Shown here one piece after another: positions 198-54,812 of a stretch of DNA of 63,906 bases. The notes under the pieces are model-generated. The model had not been told where the DNA came from and did not search any database. It saw nothing but the letters and a program-made list of their open reading frames with translations. Source of the stretch: a virus; IMG/VR virus record IMGVR_UViG_3300010371_000004, positions 1 to 63,906 of that record, one strand, 5' to 3'. How positions within the stretch are numbered: the stretch's first letter is position 1; each line of letters starts with the position of its first letter. The position numbers were made by a program, and so were the translations under genes.

Positions 198-273
198 TGG
201 CGAGCGTGACAGGACTTGAACCTGCGACCTTCTCCGTGACAGGGAGATAATCTAACCGCTGAAATACACGCCC
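198..273 (-). tRNA. tRNA-Asp (GTC)
   Basis: A full cloverleaf reads on the minus strand. The 7-bp acceptor is GGGCGTG with CACGCTC, and the 5-bp anticodon stem TCTCC/GGAGA encloses the loop CTGTCAC with anticodon GTC at 238-240. The T arm carries GGTTCAAGTCC-type bases, the discriminator is G, and CCA is encoded at 198-200. The D and anticodon region closely resembles bacterial tRNA-Asp. Phage tRNAs usually supplement decoding or replace host tRNAs cut by defence nucleases. It sits between the late small-gene chain and the terminase. Confidence 0.93.
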
Positions 274-17778: not shown

Positions 17779-18867
17779 ATGCCAGTAAGAATTGTGACGT
17801 GTAAATTACGTACAACAGAAGAAAATCGCGCAATTCTCGCGGATACGATGGCTACCTATGCCAGGGTGTCCAATTTAATATCTGGTATCGCTTGGCATTC
17901 GCGGGCATTCGGTCTATTTGGACTGCATCGCCTGTCGTATCATCAAGCGCGAAAGGCTGAACCGTCCCTACCTTCCACTAGCGTAGTCGCAGCGATGCGG
18001 GGAGTGGTTCATTCCTACAAAAAGGATCGGCAGCACTATCATAATTTCAAAGAATCAGGGGCCGTAACTCTCAATAAATGGGCATACAAATTGGTCGGAG
18101 TGTCGTCAGTCAAGATCACGACAACACAAGGACGATTGACGCTCTCTCTCGCTCATGGCGGTAAACAGCGGGAAATTCTCGCCGCCGGGAAGATCGGGGA
18201 AGCGGATCTCATTTATCGGGATGGTGAATTCTATCTGGCAATATCGGTGACTATTCCCGATGTTCCCACGAAACCCACGAATGGCGTCATTGGCATTGAT
18301 TTGGGTGTCTCGCAAGTTACGACTGACTCAGACGGGGAATCAGTCGCCGGGGAGCCAATAAAGGCCATGCGGCGAAAAATGAGGCGGGTTCGCGGACTGC
18401 TCCAAAAGAAGGGGACCAAGAGCGCCAAGCGTCACCTAAAGCGGGTCGGTAAAAAGGAAAGCCGGTACCGAAAGAACGCGAACCATGTGATTTCTAAACA
18501 GATCGTCGCCAAGGCGGTCAACACGGCGAAGGCACTCGCGCTAGAGGATTTGAAGAAAATCCGAGAGCGCAGTAACGGTTTCGGTCGTGAGATGAGATGG
18601 CTCTTAGGTGGTTGGTCTTTTGCGGACCTCCGCGCCAAGATCACGTACAAGGCACAAGATGCGGGCATTCCCTGCGTCTTCGTGGACCCACGCAATACGT
18701 CTCGGACCTGCTCAAAATGCGGGCACTGTGATAAAGCGAATCGTAAAAGCCAATCTCGATTTGAATGCAATTTGTGTGGCTTCGTTGCCAACGCTGATGT
18801 AAATGCAGCGGTCAACATCGGAGTACGGGGTCAACTGTCCAAGACCCTAATGATGTCCGCTGCCTAG
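17779..18867 (+). CDS. tnpB: TnpB-type RNA-guided nuclease (orphan)
   Basis: A 362-aa protein with a complete TnpB layout. The N-terminal OrfB/HTH-like part leads to RuvC-I D174 in GIDLGV and RuvC-II E256 in ALEDLKKI. A four-cysteine zinc finger (C311, C314, C330, C333) precedes RuvC-III D340 in NADVNAA. All three acidic residues are present, so it should be active. TnpB proteins cut DNA using an omega-RNA made from the end of their gene and the transposon right end. No TnpA lies nearby. Two hairpins follow the stop codon. Host-style or phage-domesticated use are both possible. Confidence 0.9.
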   Translation: MPVRIVTCKLRTTEENRAILADTMATYARVSNLISGIAWHSRAFGLFGLHRLSYHQARKAEPSLPSTSVVAAMRGVVHSYKKDRQHYHNFKESGAVTLNKWAYKLVGVSSVKITTTQGRLTLSLAHGGKQREILAAGKIGEADLIYRDGEFYLAISVTIPDVPTKPTNGVIGIDLGVSQVTTDSDGESVAGEPIKAMRRKMRRVRGLLQKKGTKSAKRHLKRVGKKESRYRKNANHVISKQIVAKAVNTAKALALEDLKKIRERSNGFGREMRWLLGGWSFADLRAKITYKAQDAGIPCVFVDPRNTSRTCSKCGHCDKANRKSQSRFECNLCGFVANADVNAAVNIGVRGQLSKTLMMSAA

Positions 18868-23780: not shown

Positions 23781-24223
23781 GCAAAGTTCCGCAACCCAAA
23801 ATCACCTACGTCAACCCCGAGGATATCAAAAAGATCAGCGGTTGGGAATGGCCTCTTGACGAGGTTGCTTGGTGTCGAGTTTGCCTGATTGATCGGTATA
23901 CGTGCGATGCAGCGCCCCGAGGTCCGCATATCGCCGGTTATTGCCCGCGTTGTGGTTCGTTCTTGCGGTTCCTGACTCGAAACGAGAAGCCTAAAGAGCA
24001 ACCCAAGCCCAAGGCAAAAGAGCAACCTGCGGCAAAGAAAACGACCGACTACGGGTACATCGTCAGCGCAACCGTTGGGAACGGCCTTGGCTTGGTCACA
24101 ACTGTCCTAGGCGTCGTTGAGGTTGCGCACGACATGAGATTGAGAGACGCGGCGATCAAAAAGGCACCAACCGCAAAGATCCGCTATGACTATTTGGAAG
24201 TTGTTCCGAAGGTCGAACGATGA
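23777..24223 (+). CDS. Zinc-ribbon hypothetical protein (148 aa)
   Basis: CRVC and CPRC form a zinc ribbon (residues about 33-60). A Lys/Pro-rich linker and a small C-terminal domain follow. ATGA-coupled on both sides. Function unknown. Confidence 0.72.
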   Translation: MSKVPQPKITYVNPEDIKKISGWEWPLDEVAWCRVCLIDRYTCDAAPRGPHIAGYCPRCGSFLRFLTRNEKPKEQPKPKAKEQPAAKKTTDYGYIVSATVGNGLGLVTTVLGVVEVAHDMRLRDAAIKKAPTAKIRYDYLEVVPKVER

Positions 24224-24597
24224 CGACGACGCGAATTCCAACGGAACCGGGCCAGTATTGGGTGAGAAATGCAATCGGGTCCTGGCTTATCGCTGACCTC
24301 GTTTCACCGTCACGGAGACTCGTTTTGTTGCAAGGGGCTTCCGGCTTTTGTTCGGCACCTGACGAGTGGATATGGAATCCCGAGCGCATCAAGTCACCCG
24401 ACGAGATTCAAGCGGTTAAGATCGAGGTTTTGGGGCTCAGAACACTCACAACGAACCGGCTCAAGTCGAAAGGGCTTGCTACTGTCGAAGCCGTTCGAAG
24501 TGCCGACCGGCTTACGTTGTCCTCAATCCCTGGCATCGGTCGAAAGGGAGTCAAGGACATTCAGGATGCAGTGAGGCTTTATGATGCTTTGTCCTAA
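24220..24597 (+). CDS. Protein with RNA polymerase alpha-CTD-like helix-hairpin-helix
   Basis: 125 aa. The N-terminal ~65 residues are a small beta domain (PGQYWVRNAIGSWLIADL...). Residues about 68-122 read IEVLGLRTLTTNRLKSKG, then TVEAVRSADRLTLSSIPGIG, then RKGVKDIQDAV, closely following the alpha subunit C-terminal domain. Such a domain could contact DNA or sigma, or compete with host alpha-CTD. It may be a transcription modulator; a simple DNA-binding helix-hairpin-helix role is the alternative. Confidence 0.7.
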   Translation: MTTTRIPTEPGQYWVRNAIGSWLIADLVSPSRRLVLLQGASGFCSAPDEWIWNPERIKSPDEIQAVKIEVLGLRTLTTNRLKSKGLATVEAVRSADRLTLSSIPGIGRKGVKDIQDAVRLYDALS

Positions 24598-24678: not shown

Positions 24679-24891
24679 ATGGCTAGAGTTGGATATTGTA
24701 GGCACGGTACCCACACGGGATACGGAGACACCTTTCGCCCATGTGACCAGTGCATAACCGAAGCTGCGGCAGCACAGCGCAAAGAAGAGGCACGTATCGA
24801 AGAGATTCGCCGTATCGTGAACGAAGAGTTGGACAAGCGTGCTCCCAAACTCTCTACCGTGCTGTTCGATCAGACCCGTGATACGACGTAA
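24679..24891 (+). CDS. Small Cys/His protein (70 aa)
   Basis: MARVGYCRHGTHTGYG..., with C, H and CDQC residues suited to a zinc site, then a helix. A GTG four codons earlier is an alternative start. Its end overlaps the convergent lysin gene by 22 bases. Confidence 0.6.
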   Translation: MARVGYCRHGTHTGYGDTFRPCDQCITEAAAAQRKEEARIEEIRRIVNEELDKRAPKLSTVLFDQTRDTT

Positions 24892-25376
24892 ATCTGCATT
24901 AGGCTCATCCACTTAGGCTCTGACATCCACCGACGCGATCCTGGCCCGTGATGGGCGTGGCTCTCGAACGTGAACCCTTTGAAAATCAATAGGACGTGAC
25001 CGATCCCGCCGCCGTCCTTTGGATCTAAAAAGGCAATCCGAAATATCCCGTCTTTGTTCAAAGCATCGGCGGGAGTGCTTCTTTTGAAGCCGTGCGATTC
25101 AAAGTATTCATGCTGCTGAACCGATCCGTCAGGTAGGTCAAAATCCGCAGGCCGTCCAAGCGTTCGATAGAGGCAGTCCCGAACGAAGCCCGAGCAGTCG
25201 ATTTTTTCTATATCCACCAAATCGCAGCCGAGGTGCGGAACCTTTGATCCGAGTCCATAAACTACACCGGCTTTTTCGAGTTCCTTCGTGTACGCCTCTG
25301 GTTTGGTCACATCGAACGGATGGAACAGAGGCCAAGGATATTCAGAGGTCGACGGGATGATGCACTTCACCCGCAA
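24870..25376 (-). CDS. NlpC/P60-type peptidase (probable endolysin)
   Basis: This 168-aa protein has the NlpC/P60 triad pattern: C61 in KIDCSGFVRDCLY, H127 in GIGHVLLIF, and a further polar residue near H140 in FESHAHHG. These enzymes cut the peptide stems of peptidoglycan. No signal peptide or binding domain is seen, so export would need a holin. It stands alone among plus-strand genes. Tail-associated use is less likely given its position. Confidence 0.78.
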   Translation of the reverse strand: MRVKCIIPSTSEYPWPLFHPFDVTKPEAYTKELEKAGVVYGLGSKVPHLGCDLVDIEKIDCSGFVRDCLYRTLGRPADFDLPDGSVQQHEYFESHGFKRSTPADALNKDGIFRIAFLDPKDGGGIGHVLLIFKGFTFESHAHHGPGSRRWMSEPKWMSLMQIYVVSRV

Positions 25377-25680: not shown

Positions 25681-25749
25681 CTCGCTTCGCTCGGTCGCTG
25701 CTGTCCGTCGTTGGTTGCCGAAACCGGAGTTTCGGTACGGTGGGTGGTC
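25681..25749 (+). repeat. REP-like hairpin element, copy A
   Basis: CTCGCTTCGCTCG, then 24 variable bases, then a 7-bp hairpin with CGGA loop (CCGAAAC/GTTTCGG, 25718-25735), then GGGTGGTC (25742-25749). The same blocks at nearly the same spacing form copy B at 42400-42470. It lies directly after a stop codon in a gene-free stretch. Confidence 0.65.
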
Positions 25750-26033
25750 CTCGATTACGAAAACAGGCTATCATAATCGTGGTTATACAAAAGCACGACC
25801 ATCTTTCGCATAACCAGCTTTTTATGAAGCCCTTTCGCCTCAACCGGAGTTTCGTTGAATTCGGAACCGGAATAAATGCTCCTTCGAAGAAAGGTTCACA
25901 GCGCGGCGACTCGGGCAAGCCGAGCACGCCTTGCACGGGGAGCGGGTAGTTCCCTTCGGACCTGGGACAGGGTTGAGGTGAACAGGGAGAGGGCGGCGAC
26001 TACAAGGCCGCACTTCTATTCGGGCCCCGAAAG
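25750..26033. other. Gene-free stretch with a degenerate third element
   Basis: CAACCGGAGTTTCGTTG at about 25842 resembles the hairpin of copies A and B. Open frames here are low in quality, one being antisense to the Fic gene. GC-rich hairpin-forming sequence lies at 25905-25950. Confidence 0.35.
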
Positions 26034-26702
26034 TTACTTCGATTTAGTCGACGCTTCGTACATTGACGCAATTAATAGGGCAGCGAGCGCGGCTGGATTG
26101 CCTTTGCTCGCATCGCTCATAGCCTGACAGTACACGTCATTCGGTGTTGGTCGAGCGTAGCTTGGCATTCTCGTATGTATCCCGAATCGAGCACAGTAAG
26201 CCTTAAGTATTAGTCTTCCCATCCGTCCGTTTCCATTCAAAAAAGGATGGATGGTGTTAAATCTTCCGACAGTTTGGGCCGTTATTAGAGCGAGAGTCCT
26301 GACCTTCTGGTCCGGGTTCATTTTCGGATATGCCTTTTGGTAGTCAGAGATCTTCTTCGTACCTTCTTCAAGAACCGATCGAAGGTTCGACGGGACCTTT
26401 TGGAAATGAAGTCCTTGCATGAGAGTAATCGGGACGCTGCCGCTCCAAACCCGCACTGCAACGTTTTGCATTAGGCATGGCCGAGAAGCATCGTCCTGTC
26501 TTGTGTTGCCTGCGTAGTACGGCACCGGGACGCATGGTTTAAATGCTATTCCGTGCCACTCCGTCACTGCCGACGGAGTGACGGACTTTGAACTATCTAC
26601 TTCTATAACGCGCTTGTATAAGCGCATAAAGACCAATTTTTCCTCGCTTGTGCGAGTCTGATCATGCCACTCGGGGCAACTAACCGGGAGTGAACTCATC
26701 AT
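26034..26702 (-). CDS. fic: Fic-domain protein with N-terminal inhibitory motif
   Basis: This 222-aa protein carries the exact Fic motif HPFLNGNGRMGR (152-163), the active site that transfers AMP or another nucleotide phosphate to target proteins. VPVPYYAGNTRQ (58-69) matches the usual upstream Fic region. S109-x3-E113-G114 fits the (S/T)xxxE(G/N) self-inhibition motif of class II Fic enzymes. It overlaps the gene upstream by 23 bases and closes a three-gene operon. Targets could be host translation or defence proteins. Confidence 0.9.
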   Translation of the reverse strand: MMSSLPVSCPEWHDQTRTSEEKLVFMRLYKRVIEVDSSKSVTPSAVTEWHGIAFKPCVPVPYYAGNTRQDDASRPCLMQNVAVRVWSGSVPITLMQGLHFQKVPSNLRSVLEEGTKKISDYQKAYPKMNPDQKVRTLALITAQTVGRFNTIHPFLNGNGRMGRLILKAYCARFGIHTRMPSYARPTPNDVYCQAMSDASKGNPAALAALLIASMYEASTKSK

Positions 26703-27135
26703 CCTCTGCGACGGAAGCTTCTAATTCTGACTCATTCAGCACCAATCCCCCAAGACTGTCTGCATTCTTTGGGAATAATTCGGCAACGCTTGCAATCATG
26801 TCCCCGATATTCCAATCAGCATTCACAGCAAAAGCATCAACTTGCTGAAACATGCCTTCAAACTCGCTAAGAATCGATTGCAGAGCAATGTCCGCCAAAT
26901 CTTCGGACGAGACATCAGCTGCTCGCGGCTTTGAGATATAGGCGGTTGAGGCCTTCTTAACTATCCGCTGAACTTCTGGATTAACAAAGTTGCCTGGAAC
27001 GTACTGAACTTCAAGTAGCTTTGCCACCTTAGTGGGACGCCACGGGCCCTCGTAACTCGAGATGCACTTCCCTCCGAGTTTTCTCCTGTCGCTCCAATCC
27101 CTTGATACTGCATCAACCGGCAAACTTAAAATCAT
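26680..27135 (-). CDS. Hypothetical protein, middle gene of the Fic operon
   Basis: 151 aa. GAGGTGAG precedes the ATG. The middle reads PTKVAKLLEVQYVPGNFVNP, then EVQRIVKKASTAYIS; the C-terminus is acidic. It is soluble, with no catalytic motif I recognise. Tight packing with fic suggests a partner, target adaptor or antidote. Confidence 0.75.
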   Translation of the reverse strand: MILSLPVDAVSRDWSDRRKLGGKCISSYEGPWRPTKVAKLLEVQYVPGNFVNPEVQRIVKKASTAYISKPRAADVSSEDLADIALQSILSEFEGMFQQVDAFAVNADWNIGDMIASVAELFPKNADSLGGLVLNESELEASVAEDDEFTPG

Positions 27136-27141
27136 GCGGGG

Positions 27142-27849
27142 TCAACTCACCTCGAATTCGGTCAAGTTCTTTTCTTTCAACAGCTTCTTTAGAGTACTAC
27201 TTTTTGCCCTTGCTCGGTCAAGCACCTCACCAAGTCCCTCAATATCGGCGGAGTCCATGGCGAAGAAGCTTTCCTTTGTTGCTCCGTCTTGCTGAAACAC
27301 GATTTTCAGCATATGAATCAATACGAACTGAGATGGGTCTTCGTCGGGACTTCCTGTGAAAACAGGGCGAATGTCCGTGAGTATTCTTGAGTCTCGGTAT
27401 ATTCGATCATGGTCTGCGTAGACACTGTAGACCTTAGAGACCATTCCAACTCCACTTTTAAGCGACAACAGCGATGGCAGACGACTCCAAACTACCTTGA
27501 TCTCTTGGGCGGTTAGCTGGCCGTCTTCAGTATCGGCCATACCATTCAAGATACTTTCCACAAACTGCTCCGGGCCAAGGTTGCGCAGCTGCATAACGCT
27601 AGTCATCGAGACAGTCGCAGAAAGAAGAGAATAAATATCCTCCGGTTTAAAGTCCTGCATTAGGGCCAATAGCCGATTCACAGACGGACCAAAAGAAGAA
27701 GATGGAGGACTGTCTCGAACTTCAGTCAAGAAGGTAGCAAACTGCTTTTCACTCATCGTGGCAATGAGTCTGATCGCGCCACGATCCTCAGGAGGCGGCG
27801 TCAGAGACGACATGACAAGACTTCGGTCAACATCTGATGCAGACGACAC
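27142..27849 (-). CDS. Hypothetical helical protein, first gene of the Fic operon
   Basis: A 235-aa protein with GTG start; an internal ATG at residue 13 is possible. It is mostly helical, with a C-terminal part DIRPVFTGSPDEDPSQFVLI...SFFAMDSADIEGLGEVL that recalls a widespread uncharacterised bacterial C-terminal region. TAAGCT lies six bases upstream, a weak leaderless -10. Function unknown. Six bases separate its stop from the next ATG. Confidence 0.75.
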   Translation of the reverse strand: MSSASDVDRSLVMSSLTPPPEDRGAIRLIATMSEKQFATFLTEVRDSPPSSSFGPSVNRLLALMQDFKPEDIYSLLSATVSMTSVMQLRNLGPEQFVESILNGMADTEDGQLTAQEIKVVWSRLPSLLSLKSGVGMVSKVYSVYADHDRIYRDSRILTDIRPVFTGSPDEDPSQFVLIHMLKIVFQQDGATKESFFAMDSADIEGLGEVLDRARAKSSTLKKLLKEKNLTEFEVS

Positions 27850-29834: not shown

Positions 29835-29925
29835 CTTCGCAGAAAGCGGTAGGCAACTACCAGATGCGGGTCCGCTGACTCCCGTGATTACAAGATGTCG
29901 AAGGGTACACGCGGACCCTGGAAAC
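29835..29925. repeat. Structured ~90-base repeat, copy A
   Basis: The core GCGGGTCCGCTGACTCC is shared with copy B (44169-44259). GGTAG-GCAA-CTACC (29848-29861) forms a GNRA-loop hairpin. GGGTCCGC (29868-29875) pairs with GCGGACCC (29911-29918), exactly 43 bases apart in both copies. About 80% identity with conserved pairing suggests selection on structure. It lies between genes. Confidence 0.65.
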
Positions 29926-29966
29926 AAGACGCACCGGTTGAGTAGGGAACATACGAATAACGCCGC

Positions 29967-40690: not shown

Positions 40691-42472
40691 TTACGCAACC
40701 ATATTTACAGCCACCATTGCATAGGCCGATGCAGGAGCGATACCATAGCCCATCGTTACAGTCGCACCGTTCCCTAGAGCAACAGACATAGCGACGTTAT
40801 CCCCTGAAATTACCCCTGTGGCCTTCGAAGTCTGGGTAGACGTCAAAACACCCGGCGAGAGGATTGCATCGACTACAAGGTCACCCAGCGCAGAAGATAA
40901 GGGCACACTAGCTGACGCGGAACTCGCACTGTTTGCTGTTCCAACTGTTCCGAGTGCTACCGATGCCGGAGCATCCAAAGACACGCCCATCACATACACG
41001 TTCGGGCCTCCCGTGTAGGTGAAAACGACCGCATGAGTGCCTGGAGCGTTCGTTAGGAGATAATACAGAGTCACCGTTAAAGTGCCCTGAGTCACGGTGC
41101 CTAGTGGGACCGGGGTTACTCCGACTCCGTTGTAGTCTTGAACCACGACGGCACCGGGGAGTCCGACAACGCATTCGGCCAGGATGATAGGACCGCCTCC
41201 ACTCGTGAGATTGAATGTGACCGTACCGGCTGAAATCGCCGCGCCACCTGAGTCGATGACTGAGACCGAAGTCGTAGGATCAACTGGGAAAATAACCGGG
41301 GGATATCGAAGGCTTGGAGAACCGCCCCCAACGACCGGAATGGCATCCGCATAATAGCCAGGTTGGATCGCGGCGTAGGTATATGATCCCGTATAGTCCT
41401 TCAACGTGATCGTGTAGCCAGTTGACCCCGCTGCGCCGTTCCAAACCTGAAATGGCATAGGCGGATTTGAGAGCAAAACATCAATATTCGCGGTAGGAGT
41501 GATTCGAACTAATGATGGATCGGTCGGAGTAAGCGCAACCGTTGAGCCCGTGGTATCGGTCGTCGTGGCTGTCCCGATAGCCTGGTATGCGCCGTTCACC
41601 CAAAGAAAAGAGCCTGCTTGCGTGTGCGTGACAAATAGCGTGTCGGTTGACGGAGTATCAACAGGAGCCGCGACATCGTTCGTAAAGCGTTGCCAAAGGT
41701 TCCCGTTTGGTCCCATGACGCCCGAGTAGTCAATCGTGCCAGGTGTAATCACGCCTGCCGCCGTGGTGCAGTTGCCAATGAGAACCGAGTTCATCGCGGG
41801 CGGCGTAATCGTGGTTGAAAAGTCAAGCGTTCCCGCCGAGTTGCCTAGAGCGTTCCATGCGCCTAGCTTTAGCCAAACGTAAACGATAGACGTAGCGTCA
41901 GGAAGGGTTAGGGTATCGCCCGCGAATTCTAGCGAAGAAAAGGCCACGGCAACACCGTTGGTCACGCCAACATTTAGCGCCGTGACTGCCGCTAGAGCGG
42001 TGACTGTCCAGTAAGTCCCGTTGGGAGGCGCATGTCCAACCGTGGTTAGGATGCAAACATAAGTCACGCCACCACTTGAGGCGTATTCCCCCGGCTGATA
42101 GGTTGTTCCTGCATCGTAAGCCGTGTAAAGCTTCAATCCCGACGCAACACCAAACGTCCCCCCAGGATAAGATCCCATCACCGTCACGACCGCTAAAAGT
42201 TGGTTCAGCTTCTCAGTGATATTAGTTGCGAAATCACCTGTCGAAAAGGGAGCGTCTACCGGGTCCGTGGTGGTCGAATCGGTGCAAGTGCTCCGAAGAT
42301 AGGCCACAGTCGGACCTATCGGTATTGGAGTTTGATCGGAAGTTAGTCGGTAAGCCACTGAGTGTAAGGATACGACATTTGAAGCCCACTGAGAATTTAC
42401 TCGCTTCGCTCGATGCTTTTCCTCTCCCGCTGGGTCTGCCGAAACCGGAGTTTCGGTTAGGCGGGTGGTCAA
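40691..42472 (-). CDS. Tail fibre-like protein (593 aa, TTG start)
   Basis: Beta-rich, Ala/Thr/Val/Gly-heavy throughout. YDAGTTYQPGEYASSGGVTY resembles a carbohydrate-binding module of the chitin-binding (CBM5/12) type. Its first ~24 codons are the REP-like element copy B read on the minus strand, and the TTG start lies at the element edge, four bases after a ribbon-helix-helix gene. The native start may have been lost or may lie further in. Probable receptor-binding or baseplate-attached fibre. Confidence 0.7.
   Translation of the reverse strand: MTTRLTETPVSADPAGEEKHRAKRVNSQWASNVVSLHSVAYRLTSDQTPIPIGPTVAYLRSTCTDSTTTDPVDAPFSTGDFATNITEKLNQLLAVVTVMGSYPGGTFGVASGLKLYTAYDAGTTYQPGEYASSGGVTYVCILTTVGHAPPNGTYWTVTALAAVTALNVGVTNGVAVAFSSLEFAGDTLTLPDATSIVYVWLKLGAWNALGNSAGTLDFSTTITPPAMNSVLIGNCTTAAGVITPGTIDYSGVMGPNGNLWQRFTNDVAAPVDTPSTDTLFVTHTQAGSFLWVNGAYQAIGTATTTDTTGSTVALTPTDPSLVRITPTANIDVLLSNPPMPFQVWNGAAGSTGYTITLKDYTGSYTYAAIQPGYYADAIPVVGGGSPSLRYPPVIFPVDPTTSVSVIDSGGAAISAGTVTFNLTSGGGPIILAECVVGLPGAVVVQDYNGVGVTPVPLGTVTQGTLTVTLYYLLTNAPGTHAVVFTYTGGPNVYVMGVSLDAPASVALGTVGTANSASSASASVPLSSALGDLVVDAILSPGVLTSTQTSKATGVISGDNVAMSVALGNGATVTMGYGIAPASAYAMVAVNMVA
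42400..42470 (+). repeat. REP-like hairpin element, copy B
   Basis: CTCGCTTCGCTCG (42400-42412), hairpin CCGAAAC-CGGA-GTTTCGG (42439-42456) and GGGTGGTC (42463-42470). The hairpin-to-end spacing is identical to copy A at 25681-25749. It forms the 5' coding end of the tail gene on the other strand. Confidence 0.65.
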
Positions 42473-42765: not shown

Positions 42766-43083
42766 ATGGAACAGACATTCTATGCTTGCGACGGGTTAGA
42801 TTCACCCCAGAAGTGGTGGCAGTTTGCGTGGCGCTTTACTGGCCGTCGCCGATCTTGGCGTTTAATCTACGATACGCCCGAGTCGGCAGAAGCGCATAGT
42901 CGGGATTCATCCGGGAAGAGTTGGATTTGGGACGGCAAACCAGCCGCGCCGATCACGCTTGCAGAGTCTCAGGAGAACGCTAAGAAACTCGGTGATAAAG
43001 GAACGGCACTCGTTACCTACCAAAGAAAGAAGTTTGGTGGGCTCATTATCGTTCTGGGACAGTGGCGCGTCGATGAGCAGTAA
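42766..43083 (+). CDS. Hypothetical protein (105 aa)
   Basis: AAGGTTTAT precedes the ATG. Soluble, Trp-rich start (MEQTFYACDGLDSPQKWWQF). It overlaps the HNH-like gene by 11 bases. No family recognised; with that gene it forms a plus-strand insertion in the minus-strand tail cluster. Confidence 0.68.
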   Translation: MEQTFYACDGLDSPQKWWQFAWRFTGRRRSWRLIYDTPESAEAHSRDSSGKSWIWDGKPAAPITLAESQENAKKLGDKGTALVTYQRKKFGGLIIVLGQWRVDEQ

Positions 43084-44164
43084 ACCGCCTGGACTTTGCG
43101 GCAAATGCAATCTTAGGCAGCGCGACGGCGGACGGTCTTACTGCGATGAGTGCTCTCGTCAGATTAACGCCGAGTACCGTGAGCGAAAGAAATCGGGATT
43201 GCGATTGCGCGGGGCAAAGGGTCCGTCTGGATCGGTATGTATTGGGTGCAATTCAGCGCCCAGATGCAAGCACGGTGGTTGCTATTGCCGCTCATGTTAT
43301 AACCAAAGGCAGCGTGACTTGCGCGCTGAGAAATCCGGGTACACGCAACCCGATCAAACCGCTACATGCATCCTTCGTGATTCGGACATTTCGAACGCAC
43401 CCGAAAAGCGAAGCAAAGGCGTTGTGACAGCTTTCGGTATTGTCCCGAACAGGCAATACCTCCCAGAGTACACCACATGGAAGAACATGCGGTACCGATG
43501 CTATTATGCTCGCTGCGCATCTTTCAAGCATTACGGAGGGCGCGGAATAACTGTTTGCGACCGATGGCGAGACTCTTTTGAGGCCTTTTATCAAGACATG
43601 GGTCCACGTCCCGGTGAGCACTATTCTATTGACAGGATCAACAAGGACGGCAACTATGAGCCGTTAAATTGCCGTTGGGCGACTCAAAGCGAACAGTTGA
43701 GAAACCGGCGATCATGGACATGGGCCGCTGATGATAGGTCGCGCATGAGTCCTGTTGAACGAGCTATGGCCATCCAAAAAGCACGTTCTTTTAAGGGAGA
43801 ACATCTTACCGGTGAAGGATCAAATGGTTCATCATTAGCGCCCGATGCGCTCAGAGAGGATGCCGCAAATCGCGCAATGTCTGTTCTTCGCAAGCGGTAT
43901 GGAAACTATGACCTAAAGGCACCCATCCGCGAATCTCTTCACGAAATGGACCGGTCCACAGAAACGCCTACGGCCAAGGTGTTCGATTGCTACGGGTCCA
44001 ATACCGTAGAAGATCAGGCGAACTTTGCTTGGCTACTGTCTCACCTAACAGAATCCGAAATGGAACTCGTCATGGACAGAATGGACGACGGGAAGATTGG
44101 ATCTTTTGATGATCCTGAGTTGGCAGATATTCGCGCCAAGTTAGCACCCGTCTTAGGTTTATAA
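43073..44164 (+). CDS. Homing-endonuclease-like zinc-finger protein (363 aa)
   Basis: Two N-terminal zinc modules (CGKC...CDEC and CIGC...CRSC) precede a domain reading YTTWKNMRYRCYYARC, HYGGRGITVCDRWRDSFEAF, YSIDRINKDGNYEPLNCRW and TQSEQLRNRR. This domain is common in phage HNH/AP2-type mobile genes. The ~150-residue C-terminus is helical. It probably cleaves DNA at its own insertion site. Structured repeat copy B starts five bases after its stop codon. Confidence 0.8.
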   Translation: MSSKPPGLCGKCNLRQRDGGRSYCDECSRQINAEYRERKKSGLRLRGAKGPSGSVCIGCNSAPRCKHGGCYCRSCYNQRQRDLRAEKSGYTQPDQTATCILRDSDISNAPEKRSKGVVTAFGIVPNRQYLPEYTTWKNMRYRCYYARCASFKHYGGRGITVCDRWRDSFEAFYQDMGPRPGEHYSIDRINKDGNYEPLNCRWATQSEQLRNRRSWTWAADDRSRMSPVERAMAIQKARSFKGEHLTGEGSNGSSLAPDALREDAANRAMSVLRKRYGNYDLKAPIRESLHEMDRSTETPTAKVFDCYGSNTVEDQANFAWLLSHLTESEMELVMDRMDDGKIGSFDDPELADIRAKLAPVLGL

Positions 44165-44168
44165 CGCA

Positions 44169-44259
44169 CTTCGCAGAAAACGGGAGGCGGCTACCAGATG
44201 CGGGTCCGCTGACTCCATCGAATACAAGAAGTCGGTAACTACACGCGGACCCGGAGACT
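44169..44259. repeat. Structured ~90-base repeat, copy B
   Basis: About 80% identical to 29835-29925. GGGTCCGC (44202-44209) and GCGGACCC (44245-44252) pair at exactly the spacing of copy A; the small hairpin keeps CTACC with a partly changed partner. It fills the gap between the HNH-like gene and the convergent tail gene. Confidence 0.65.
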
Positions 44260-47200
44260 AGAATCGACTCCACGTCTTGCGGTCAGCGTCTATCGAATAC
44301 CAAAGCGAAGGATCGGTTTCCCCGTTGATCGTTGGGGACCATGTTAGCGGGTTCTGGTTTGTATCGCCGGGCACTACGTTCGACCATCCACCATCGGCAA
44401 CTTGGATAGCCGTGTTAGTCGAATCGACCATCTGATAGGGAGCCGGGAGTGATGTTGGATTGAGCCCTTTCGTGATCCATTGTGTACCGGGTCCCGAAGT
44501 GCCCGCGTTGTATTTGAAGAACGTCACGACAAAATAGCCGTCGTGATCTATAACCGGGGTTGCTCCGAGTGCGTTCGCCATATAAAGTGCCGGGGTGCTC
44601 CAATCCTGACCGTGAGACTGAGAATAACAGACGTAGGTGCTATAAACTCCCGCCGTCAATCTCCCAATGAACAGATAAACGCGCCCATCTATAGGAGCGT
44701 AACACATTCGAGCCGTCTTAACGTCGCCGTAACTCGTCACCTGGTTGTAAAACAGCCACGCAGGGGCAGGGAACGGGAATGATGCGCGGCGATACCAAAC
44801 ATCCCCCGCCGTGACGACAGACTGATGAACTCTTGACCATTCGTCCTGAATATGCCAAGCCTGACCCGCTGCGAGAACAGGATTTGCAAGATAGGCAAGC
44901 CTCAAAGTGGATCTATTTTGCGGAGTAAACGCAATCGTTCCCGAAACGGACTCAACACCCGCTAATACGTCTTTTTGAAGCAAGTTCGTCTTTGCGAAAG
45001 GCGTACCGGTGATAAATCGGCCCTTGGCGTTCGTTGTTCCCGTTCCCGAACTGGTTCCGCTTACCGTTTCCTTTTCAGTCACGAGAGTCGAGGTAATTGG
45101 GTTCTGATTGATGTCGATAGCAACGCCGGTCGTTCTCTGTTTCAGAAACTCGAGCGTGTAATATCGAAACGGTGTACCGAAGCCTCCCGCGTTTACAATG
45201 TCACCGCTCTTTGGCTGGAAATAGACGACTGCCGCCCGTGCCTGGTATTGCAACTGCGTCGGATTCGTTGTCAATGCTCTGTCGATCCAATAAACAGATG
45301 GAGCAGACCCCGTATAAATCGCCCCTGCGCCACATAAGTTTGACAGAAGCCAAGAAGATCCATACCAGCTTGAAAGATCGGGCAGAGAGGCGTTAGGCGT
45401 AGCATGCCACCCGTTTATTTTGTTGATCCGATCCGAGAATGTGTTTACGCCTGCACTGAGTATGGTGGGGTTATTTGATGTCGTCACGTCCCATTGACCG
45501 AAGGACCGTTTCCCGTCCGTGTCCCCTAGCCCAAACTCGTAATAATTGAATCCTCCGTATCCCGGTTGACCCGGTGTTACATTGACTTGCGTCTCGTCGG
45601 ATTGAAGGAACGTAACCCTCGAATCTCCGTCTCGCACCATTCGTATCTGATGGATCTGGTATGTGCCCGAATTTGCCGGGAAATCAAGAAGCATAGACGT
45701 AAAACCGTCAATTCCCCATCCCGGGCCCTCGGAAGGTGTCCCGGTAGATAGCGCCTTGCAATCTCTAACCCCCGATTTGAACAGAGTCGGAATAAATCCC
45801 GTGTTTGTTGCGCTGTATGGGGCCATGAGGTCAAAGCGGATAGTAGTTAAGGCACCGGATGCTCCAAGCGCGTGTTTATACTGAATGAAACCTAGCGTTC
45901 CGCCTTCCCCCCTGATTTCGCAGATGATCTGCCAGATGGATTGATAGGACCACGTAACGGAACCATCCACGATCGCCCCGCCTGTGCCTGTAGGACCGCC
46001 TGACGCCGCCGATGTGCCCGCAACCGTGCATTTGTACAGGTTCCCGCCATTTACTACGAAATCGTTCACCAGATAGCCGGTTAATGCCGTCCAAGCCGTG
46101 CCCGCTGTGTTCGGCTGAATGTCGATTTCGAGGTATCGGTATCCTTCCGTGTTCTTGGGAACGCCTGCCACTGTCCATGTCTTTGTAGCCACTCCCGAGA
46201 GTGACCCTGAGTTCACTTGGAGAAACCCACCGACTAATGTGACATTGGCCGACCACTGAACGACCGAAGCACAAGGATCTAGGACGTAAGAAGCATCCTG
46301 CCATAACGTTAAAGCGTTGAACGGTCGAAGCCGGGCGTTTAGTGCCAAATCCCAAGGCAAAGCGGCCTTTTCGTTGAATGATGCGAGCGATTGCGGGTTA
46401 ATCCGCGCCATGAGCCCGTTTCCGTCTTGGCGCTCGAATGATGTACCGTCGATGTTCGGCGCTGGTGGCGTTGTACTACCACCGAAACCATTATTCCAAC
46501 TGTAACCGGTGATCGTAGCCCGCGCATTTTCTAGGCTAATCGTATCCCCGAAATTGAAAGGCGTCCAGATCGGTAGCCCGGTGGATGGATTTTTAGGACC
46601 GTCCGGCGCGGCCCACTCCGTTACCACCGCAGGAGCGTAAGCCGAATCAAAAGCGTTTATTTGCCCCGTGATAGTTCCTTGCTTCGTCGGTTGCATTTGG
46701 AATCTGACCCCTATTCCGCCGCCTAGTCTTGGCATCCCCGAAATGGAAATCCCTCCGGTAAGATCCACTGTCCCGACCGGTACCGTATAAATCTGAGTGA
46801 AGGGCCATTGAAGCGACTGACCAAGCGCATTGCATGTCAACGACCCTGCGAGAGTTGAGGGAGTCACAACCTGACCGCTTGCGGTGAATGCCAATTCCAT
46901 GAAGCAGGTATGACCGCCTCTTAGTGGTATAGGCGTCGTAAATGACGGGCCGATGATTCCTGAGAAAGAAAATGTATCGCCACCTACATCAAGTGTTCCG
47001 CTCACCGCGCCACCAAGTTTCGGAACGTCGTACAGGTCCCATTCTGCGGTTCTGGTAAGCCCGCTCGTATAGTCCGATGCCTCACCCATCTCTACCGAAA
47101 TCGAATAAGACCCGGTGAACCCCGCTAATGGTATCGGGATATTAGTTCCGTCACTGAGTCCACAGGATCCGACCGATGCAGATTGAAGCCATACCGTAGC

Positions 47201-54392: not shown

Positions 54393-54812
54393 TTAGACGA
54401 TGACCACCGCATTGCCGTTGACCGTCGATGCGTCGGTTGTCGTGATCTTGACTGACGTTACGTCCGACGCAAACCACTTAGGCGCTACCGTGTTGTTCGC
54501 GTTGAACAAATCAAGATCCCAGTGCATCGACATACCGTCCGCGAGAACTACCGTTAGCAGCAATGACACGCCATTGTAAAACTTGATGGTCGTTGTCGCA
54601 CCCGTGCCGGTAGCCGCCGAAATGTCGAATGATTCAAGCGTCGTCTTTGAGAACGCCCAAGCGTAAACCGTATCAGTTTGACTGGCCGGGACCAATTGAG
54701 AAAAGGGTACACCTTCATTCCCTGTCAGAGTCACCGAGCCGCTGATAGTCGGGCCGGTTGTTCCGGTCGAAGTCGTTGTGATTGTTCTTGTTAAAAGCTC
54801 GCCAGCGATAAT
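54393..54812 (-). CDS. Beta-rich head/decoration protein, probable ATT start
   Basis: The clearly coding frame (GELLTRTITTTSTGTTG...) extends upstream of the only GTG (54734), which has no ribosome site, back to the previous stop. Within that stretch GGGAG lies eight bases before ATT at 54812, the best-placed initiation codon. No ATG, GTG or TTG is available there. The product is Thr/Val-rich and likely structural. Confidence 0.6.
   Translation of the reverse strand: MIAGELLTRTITTTSTGTTGPTISGSVTLTGNEGVPFSQLVPASQTDTVYAWAFSKTTLESFDISAATGTGATTTIKFYNGVSLLLTVVLADGMSMHWDLDLFNANNTVAPKWFASDVTSVKITTTDASTVNGNAVVIV

What the first reader, a model, noticed from the sequence alone, without database searches (positions are those of the whole stretch)
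25681..27849. Three-gene operon ending in a self-inhibited-type Fic enzyme
Two uncharacterised genes (235 and 151 aa) are tightly packed ahead of a Fic protein with an intact HPFxxGNGRxxR motif and an (S/T)xxxE(G/N) inhibitory motif at 109-114. The operon runs against its plus-strand neighbours and lies next to a REP-like element, the look of an inserted moron. A regulated AMPylation system acting on host or competing phage is possible.
Basis: partly seen in the sequence, partly recalled or inferred. Interest (0 to 1): 0.7.

Follow-up and report, generated by a model that had tools for sequence, protein, structure and literature searches.

The report
Phage COMMD-like three-gene Fic module
A phage carries a compact three-gene unit in which a Fic enzyme (a protein-modifying enzyme, often a toxin) is preceded by a small acidic-tailed partner and by a bacterial relative of the COMMD proteins; bacteria carry the same kind of unit with the first and third genes swapped, which points to an undescribed plug-in conflict system.

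Summary
The three genes are real and tightly packed on the minus strand of a complete 63.9-kb phage. Gene 3 is a genuine Fic protein, but the proposed self-inhibitory motif (SVLEEG) is a coincidence: it lies in the helix after the flap, none of five full-length relatives has it, and 11% of shuffles contain such a motif. The trio is not three unrelated singletons. Full-length Fic relatives occur in 8 of 28 genomes of one Planctomycetota order. The seven with an intact operon carry TIGR04255 – ~130-aa acidic-tailed protein – Fic, and in the main subgroup gene 2 overlaps fic in the same nucleotide register as in the phage. Gene 1 of the phage is different: it is a bacterial COMMD-like protein (PDB 9q6a, E = 2.4e-10). 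COMMD-like genes head other three-gene operons in Planctomycetota (10 loci), and a papain-like third gene occurs behind both COMMD-like and TIGR04255. So two first-gene families are interchangeable ahead of swappable third genes. Most likely it is a modular toxin/defence-type conflict cassette with the Fic enzyme as effector, held or guided by its partners. That function is inferred. P0002's sequence homology is weak, and the COMMD-like + Fic pairing was seen only here.

The parts
27142..27849 (-). Gene 1 (P0003, 235 aa): bacterial COMMD-like protein
   Evidence: phmmer to PDB 9q6a/9q6c/9q6d 'COMMD-like protein MBK5214510' E=2.4e-10; profile of P0003 with nine bacterial relatives matches the same chain at 7.6e-29 over nearly full length; bacterial homologues down to 1.4e-19
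27358..27384 (-). ILTDIRPVF motif of the COMMD-like protein (residues 156-164)
   Evidence: R161, P162 and F164 invariant in the ten aligned sequences
26680..27135 (-). Gene 2 (P0002, 151 aa): middle protein with acidic tail EDDEFTPG, no Pfam/PHROG/NCBIfam/PADLOC match
   Evidence: positional counterpart of the Planctomycetota middle gene; profile similarity of the C-terminal 56 residues is weak (hhalign P=0.059)
26034..26702 (-). Gene 3 (P0001, 222 aa): Fic protein
   Evidence: Pfam PF02661 8.8e-8; 28-31% identical over its full length to five Planctomycetota Fic proteins
26214..26249 (-). Catalytic loop HPFLNGNGRMGR (residues 152-163)
   Evidence: HPFxNGNGR in all six aligned members
26490..26519 (-). 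Family signature YYAGNTRQDD (residues 62-71), upstream of the flap region
   Evidence: YYAGN and R-Q-x-D invariant; used as the search pattern
26361..26378 (-). SVLEEG (residues 109-114), the supposed inhibitory motif; judged a coincidence
26667..26704 (-). Overlap of the end of gene 2 and the start of gene 3: gene-2 stop codon 26680-26682 ends 1 nt before the Cys codon of CPEW
   Evidence: Same register in five Planctomycetota loci; second register in three more
25681..25749 (+). Repeat R1 (left bracket), second copy at 42400-42470
29835..29929 (+). Repeat R2 (right bracket), second copy at 44169-44262
   Evidence: 82% over 95 nt

Best explanation
The locus is a phage copy of a modular three-gene conflict cassette. 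Gene 3 is the effector, a Fic nucleotidyl-transferase that probably modifies a host or competitor protein and halts growth. Gene 2 is a partner made in translational coupling with the Fic enzyme (overlapping reading frames); it probably binds the enzyme and keeps it inactive or delivers it. Gene 1 is a COMMD-like protein, probably an oligomeric scaffold or sensor, occupying the slot that TIGR04255 fills in Planctomycetota. A trigger such as a competing phage would release or direct the Fic enzyme (superinfection exclusion or abortive infection), or the unit acts as an addiction module. Shown here: identities of genes 1 and 3, conserved gene order and overlap register, exchange of the first gene ahead of related third genes, and diversity of third genes. 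Inferred: toxicity, inhibition by gene 2, the sensor role of gene 1, the trigger.
For: Eight of 28 genomes of one Planctomycetota order have a full-length Fic relative. The seven intact loci are TIGR04255 - middle - Fic, with a 4-10-nt overlap of genes 1 and 2 and a 26-50-nt overlap of genes 2 and 3; the eighth is a pseudogene copy. The gene-2 stop lies 1 nt before the CPxW Cys codon in the window and in five of these loci. P0003 is COMMD-like. Ten bacterial COMMD-like loci all have a co-directional second gene and most a clear third. One papain-like third gene occurs behind COMMD-like (L040, L103-L105) and behind TIGR04255 (L079), E=3e-28 between L040 and L079, and their middle genes are related too (2e-9). 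TIGR04255 occurs in 16 of 150 Pseudomonadota genomes and in 0 of 14 control genomes, mostly heading three-gene operons with unrelated third genes, one a zeta toxin on a plasmid. Accessory-type behaviour: truncated copy in a 323-kb phage contig, pseudogene, phage- and plasmid-borne copies. One Fic trio lies between a SNF2-type helicase gene and a gene with an NPPW motif that also flanks a second trio. The Fic domain is closest in PADLOC to defence candidate PDC-S04 (4.4e-12).
Against: No function of any member is known. The link between P0002 and the Planctomycetota middle proteins is not significant by sequence alone. The COMMD-like + Fic combination was seen only in this phage. All Fic members have Asn instead of Asp/Glu in the catalytic loop, so AMPylation itself is uncertain. 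No known inhibitory motif was found in a conserved place in genes 2 or 3.
Confidence: 0.5

Rival explanations
1. Class II self-inhibited Fic enzyme: the Fic protein inhibits itself through SVLEEG, and genes 1-2 are accessory.
For: The string SVLEEG exists at 109-114.
Against: Absent in 5 of 5 relatives, 11% chance in shuffles; sits in the helix after the flap. In characterised class II and III Fic proteins the inhibitory helix is N- or C-terminal (PMC3667792).
Confidence: 0.05
2. Class I Fic toxin-antitoxin pair: P0002 is an ordinary Fic antitoxin that inserts a glutamate of an inhibitory helix into the active site; gene 1 is an unrelated neighbour.
For: Gene 2 overlaps fic in coupled frames in every close relative, as antitoxin genes often do.
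Against: No (S/T)xxxE(G/N) motif in P0002 or in eight related middle proteins. A first gene of the COMMD-like/TIGR04255 type is present in every intact operon, and gene 2 itself varies with the effector.
Confidence: 0.2
3. Dedicated modification pathway: Fic modifies gene 2 or gene 1 (or a partner loaded on them) as part of a benign regulatory or assembly task, with no toxicity.
For: Gene 2 is co-translated with Fic and has a conserved acidic tail. Third genes of sister operons include peptidase-like and metallo-beta-lactamase-like proteins (the latter recognised by eye only).
Against: Sporadic distribution, pseudogenes, carriage on plasmids and phages, and a zeta-toxin third gene suit conflict modules better.
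Confidence: 0.2
4. Chance neighbours: three unrelated genes that happen to be packed together in a phage.
For: No other COMMD-like + Fic contig was found; P0002 sequence similarity is weak.
Against: Shared gene order and exact overlap register with Planctomycetota trios; both first-gene families head the same kind of operon.
Confidence: 0.05

Closest known systems
Fic/DOC family (Pfam PF02661), nearest curated hits SoFic (NF046030) and mobile mystery protein B (TIGR02613)
   Same: Fic core helices and HPFxxGNGRxxR loop.
   Different: Far below the curated cut-offs of both (17 bits against 550 and 124). Own N-terminal signature CPxW...YYAGNxRQ, Asn in the catalytic loop, no inhibitory helix motif, conserved partners.
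VbhA/VbhT (FicA/FicT) class I Fic toxin-antitoxin modules
   Same: A small gene upstream of, and overlapping or next to, fic.
   Different: No inhibitory-helix motif in gene 2; a third conserved first gene.
SoFic anti-phage system (PMC12249575) and PADLOC PDC-S04
   Same: Fic-type enzyme considered as anti-phage effector.
   Different: Single gene (or with the small downstream AS1); no COMMD-like or TIGR04255 partner. PADLOC has no model for genes 1 or 2.
TIGR04255 (sporadTIGR04255) family operons
   Same: Same three-gene layout; TIGR04255 is the first gene of the closest Fic relatives.
   Different: The phage has a COMMD-like first gene with no detectable similarity to TIGR04255. No paper in the library mentions TIGR04255.
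COMMD proteins of the Commander/CCC complex; bacterial COMMD-like protein MBK5214510 (PDB 9q6a)
   Same: P0003 is homologous to the bacterial COMMD-like protein of 9q6a.
   Different: No eukaryotic COMMD chain is reached by the profile. A 2023 study reported no COMMD homologues in Bacteria or Archaea (PMC10187114); here one is phage-borne and in a Fic operon.

Membership tests
Fic/DOC (PF02661) | Match to the family model above the curated cut-off | tested here: met
   33.3 bits against cut-off 24
Fic/DOC (PF02661) | HxFx(D/E)GNGRxxR active site (consensus in PMC3667792) | tested here: inconclusive
   HPFLNGNGRMGR: all motif positions except D/E, which is Asn in all six members
Fic/DOC (PF02661) | AMP transfer activity | not testable with these tools
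   -
Class II self-inhibited Fic | Conserved (S/T)xxxE(G/N) in an N-terminal inhibitory helix | tested here: not met
   Not conserved and in the wrong position
Class I Fic toxin-antitoxin | Partner with the (S/T)xxxE(G/N) inhibitory helix | tested here: not met
   None in P0002 or eight middle proteins
Bacterial COMMD-like proteins (PDB 9q6a) | Significant sequence homology over the C-terminal domain | tested here: met
   2.4e-10 alone; 7.6e-29 with relatives
Eukaryotic COMMD family | Homology to eukaryotic COMM domains / COMM fold | tested here: inconclusive
   No eukaryotic COMMD chain at E<=10; the single-sequence model is too poor (pLDDT 54)
Planctomycetota TIGR04255-middle-Fic operon family | Fic of the CPxW/YYAGNxRQ type, full length | tested here: met
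Planctomycetota TIGR04255-middle-Fic operon family | Middle gene overlapping fic in the same register with acidic tail | tested here: met
Planctomycetota TIGR04255-middle-Fic operon family | TIGR04255 first gene | tested here: not met
   P0003 has no TIGR04255 similarity; COMMD-like instead

The most novel reading that the evidence does not exclude
COMMD-like and TIGR04255 proteins are interchangeable sensors or scaffolds of a previously undescribed, widespread three-gene immune or toxin system with swappable effectors (Fic, papain-like, zeta and many unknown), and this phage carries a Fic-armed version; the eukaryotic COMMD proteins would then have relatives in prokaryotic conflict systems.
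Probability: 0.35. Interest if true: 0.88.

Novelty: new variant of a known kind. Interest (0 to 1): 0.68.

Why it matters
It ties an orphan Fic module to two uncharacterised first-gene families, one of them widespread, and gives a testable architecture: fixed slots, exchangeable parts. It places a relative of bacterial COMMD-like proteins, a family reported in 2023 to have no bacterial homologues, in a phage operon with a likely toxin, so its prokaryotic role can be tested directly. The third-gene slot also offers a way to find many unknown effectors by position.

Tried and rejected
Scans of IMG/VR with P0001, P0003, the TIGR04255 alignment and the first COMMD alignment gave no homologues. 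The hit L003 is a 19-residue chance match in a tail-gene contig. locus L038 is a chance match. Plasmid Fic hits H1-H30 share only the Fic core; the Photobacterium two-ORF hit (L007) is an interrupted ordinary Fic and was dropped. Pattern hits L013, L017, L019, L020 and L021 are chance matches. P0003 against 249 Pseudomonadota genomes: none. Homology of P0003 with TIGR04255: none. Group I intron or omega-RNA nature of the R1/R2 repeats: no Rfam match. Promoter and terminator scans were no better than chance. The AlphaFold model of P0001 (pLDDT 65) gives Fic structures (FICD, Bep8) as its top Foldseek hits, but none significant; the P0003 model was unusable. A complex could not be predicted with the tools. 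The profile A6 contains part of the 9q6a sequence, so its 3.4e-60 match to 9q6a is circular and was not used. The literature library has no paper on bacterial COMMD-like proteins or TIGR04255, and bioRxiv preprints are not held.

Full report
OBSERVATION. The window is a complete phage record with a 123-bp terminal repeat, listed as a virus record, with primase/helicase, head protease, portal and terminase genes. At the stated place there are three minus-strand ORFs of 235, 151 and 222 aa. The last is a Fic protein (PF02661, 8.8e-8) with HPFLNGNGRMGR at 152-163. Genes 1 and 2 had no hit above cut-off in Pfam and none of note in PHROGs, NCBIfam or PADLOC.

THE INHIBITORY MOTIF. SVLEEG at 109-114 is literally present, but none of five full-length relatives has it, and 11% of shuffled sequences contain such a motif. 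In the model it lies in the helix 103-124 that follows the flap region and precedes the helix leading to the catalytic loop. In characterised Fic proteins the inhibitory helix is N-terminal (class II), C-terminal (class III) or in an antitoxin (class I) (PMC3667792). No motif occurs in P0002 or in eight related middle proteins. The known inhibition schemes therefore find no support here. The catalytic loop has Asn where the textbook consensus has Asp/Glu, in all family members seen.

RELATIVES OF THE FIC PROTEIN. A pattern for YYAGNxRQxD found five Planctomycetota contigs with full-length relatives, 28-31% identical to P0001 with 46 invariant columns, and a truncated copy in a 323-kb phage contig, preceded by an 86-aa acidic-tailed gene. 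In the order that holds these, 8 of 28 genomes have a relative. Across the phylum only 4 of 392 do (E <= 1e-15), three of them distant; across Pseudomonadota, 0 of 398. The seven intact loci read TIGR04255 – ~130-aa protein – Fic (TIGR04255 was confirmed with the NCBIfam model for four of them and by alignment for all seven). The eighth is a pseudogene copy with the remains of the same layout.

THE JUNCTION. In the window and in L014, L015, L016, L018 and L049 the stop codon of gene 2 ends exactly 1 nt before the Cys codon of the CPxW motif of Fic; in L027, L050 and L051 the register is -8. The C-terminal 25 residues of gene 2 carry 6-11 acidic residues in every case. Sequence similarity of P0002 to these middle proteins is weak (hhalign P = 0.059, ungapped to the same end). 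The shared register and position make common descent of the gene 2/gene 3 pair likely, but this is inference.

GENE 1 IS COMMD-LIKE. P0003 matches PDB 9q6a/9q6c/9q6d, 'COMMD-like protein MBK5214510', at 2.4e-10. A first relative was found in one Planctomycetota genome, and nine further loci in 6 of the 28 genomes of the order that also holds the Fic trios. P0003 matches these at up to 1.4e-19. A profile of P0003 and nine relatives, without any PDB sequence, matches 9q6a at 7.6e-29 over nearly its full length. No eukaryotic COMMD chain is matched, so the tie to eukaryotic COMMD rests on the depositors' name. A 2023 study of the Commander complex reported no COMMD homologues in Bacteria or Archaea (PMC10187114).

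MODULARITY. Ten bacterial COMMD-like loci all have a co-directional second gene and most a third. TIGR04255 genes, found in 16 of 150 Pseudomonadota genomes and in none of 14 control genomes, mostly head three-gene operons too; in the 29 operons tabulated the median gaps are -4 and -1 nt. One papain-like third gene stands behind COMMD-like genes (L040, L103, L104, L105) and behind a TIGR04255 gene (L079): 3e-28 for L040 against L079, with related middle genes, 2e-9. 'Papain-like' is a reading by eye of the Cys and His motifs; the family has no Pfam match. Fic stands behind TIGR04255 in Planctomycetota and behind COMMD-like in this phage. Other third genes include a zeta toxin on a Vibrio plasmid and several families without any Pfam match; HEPN-like (L092) and metallo-beta-lactamase-like (L109) third genes were recognised by eye only. 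COMMD-like and TIGR04255 proteins show no sequence similarity. The first slot thus takes either of two unrelated families, and the third slot takes many enzymes.

CONTEXT. Two dispersed repeats with exactly two copies each bracket the trio segment (R1 25681, R2 29835) and the HNH endonuclease gene at 42959-44164 (R1 42400, R2 44169) in the same order and orientation. This suggests cassette boundaries, though single-strand folding is only mildly stable and no Rfam family fits. One Planctomycetota trio (L054) lies near a SNF2-type helicase (8.2e-9) and a 1183-aa gene with an NPPW motif; a second trio (L055) is followed by a 73%-identical copy of that gene. Two ORFs beside the L054 trio look by eye like an HTH/ImmA-IrrE and a PIN-type toxin pair; this was not tested with family models.

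MECHANISM. The best reading is a conflict cassette with a Fic effector, a coupled partner and an exchangeable COMMD-like scaffold or sensor. Shown: identities of genes 1 and 3, order, overlap register, exchange of parts. Inferred: toxicity, inhibition by gene 2, sensing by gene 1, trigger. Confidence in the functional part is about one half.

LIMITS. The COMMD-like + Fic pairing rests on this one phage. No complex could be predicted. The P0003 model is unusable. Preprints and most subscription papers could not be searched, and PDB 9q6a shows that others are working on bacterial COMMD-like proteins, so parts of the wider system may already be described.

Noticed in passing
25681-25749, 29835-29929, 42400-42470, 44169-44262: Two two-copy dispersed repeats bracket the Fic trio segment and the HNH endonuclease gene in the same order and orientation; possible cassette or mobile-element ends.
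   Followed up: partly
17779-18867 (+): TnpB-family RNA-guided endonuclease gene (NF040570, 1.4e-51) in the phage genome.
   Followed up: no
18094-18125 and 54436-54468: 33-nt inverted match (91%) between the TnpB gene and a structural-gene region; could be a shared fragment or a guide-like match.
   Followed up: no
24870-25376 (-): NlpC/P60-like protein (0.013, below cut-off) downstream of the trio on the same strand; probably a separate lysis or tail gene.
   Followed up: partly
24220-24597 (+): Small protein with helix-hairpin-helix / RNA polymerase alpha-CTD-like domain (1.8e-7 and 1.1e-5).
   Followed up: no
L036 1492-2148, L037 1498-2145: Distant Fic relatives with altered HPYxNGNGH motif, also third in three-gene operons with other first genes.
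   Followed up: partly
L078-L093, L057, L059: TIGR04255-headed three-gene operons with many third genes lacking any Pfam match: a ready source of unknown effectors.
   Followed up: partly
L056 1-3800: ORFs upstream of the Fic trio of genome G005 look like phage head-tail genes, suggesting a prophage-borne trio (by eye).
   Followed up: no
201-273 (-): tRNA gene in the phage (Rfam RF00005).
   Followed up: no
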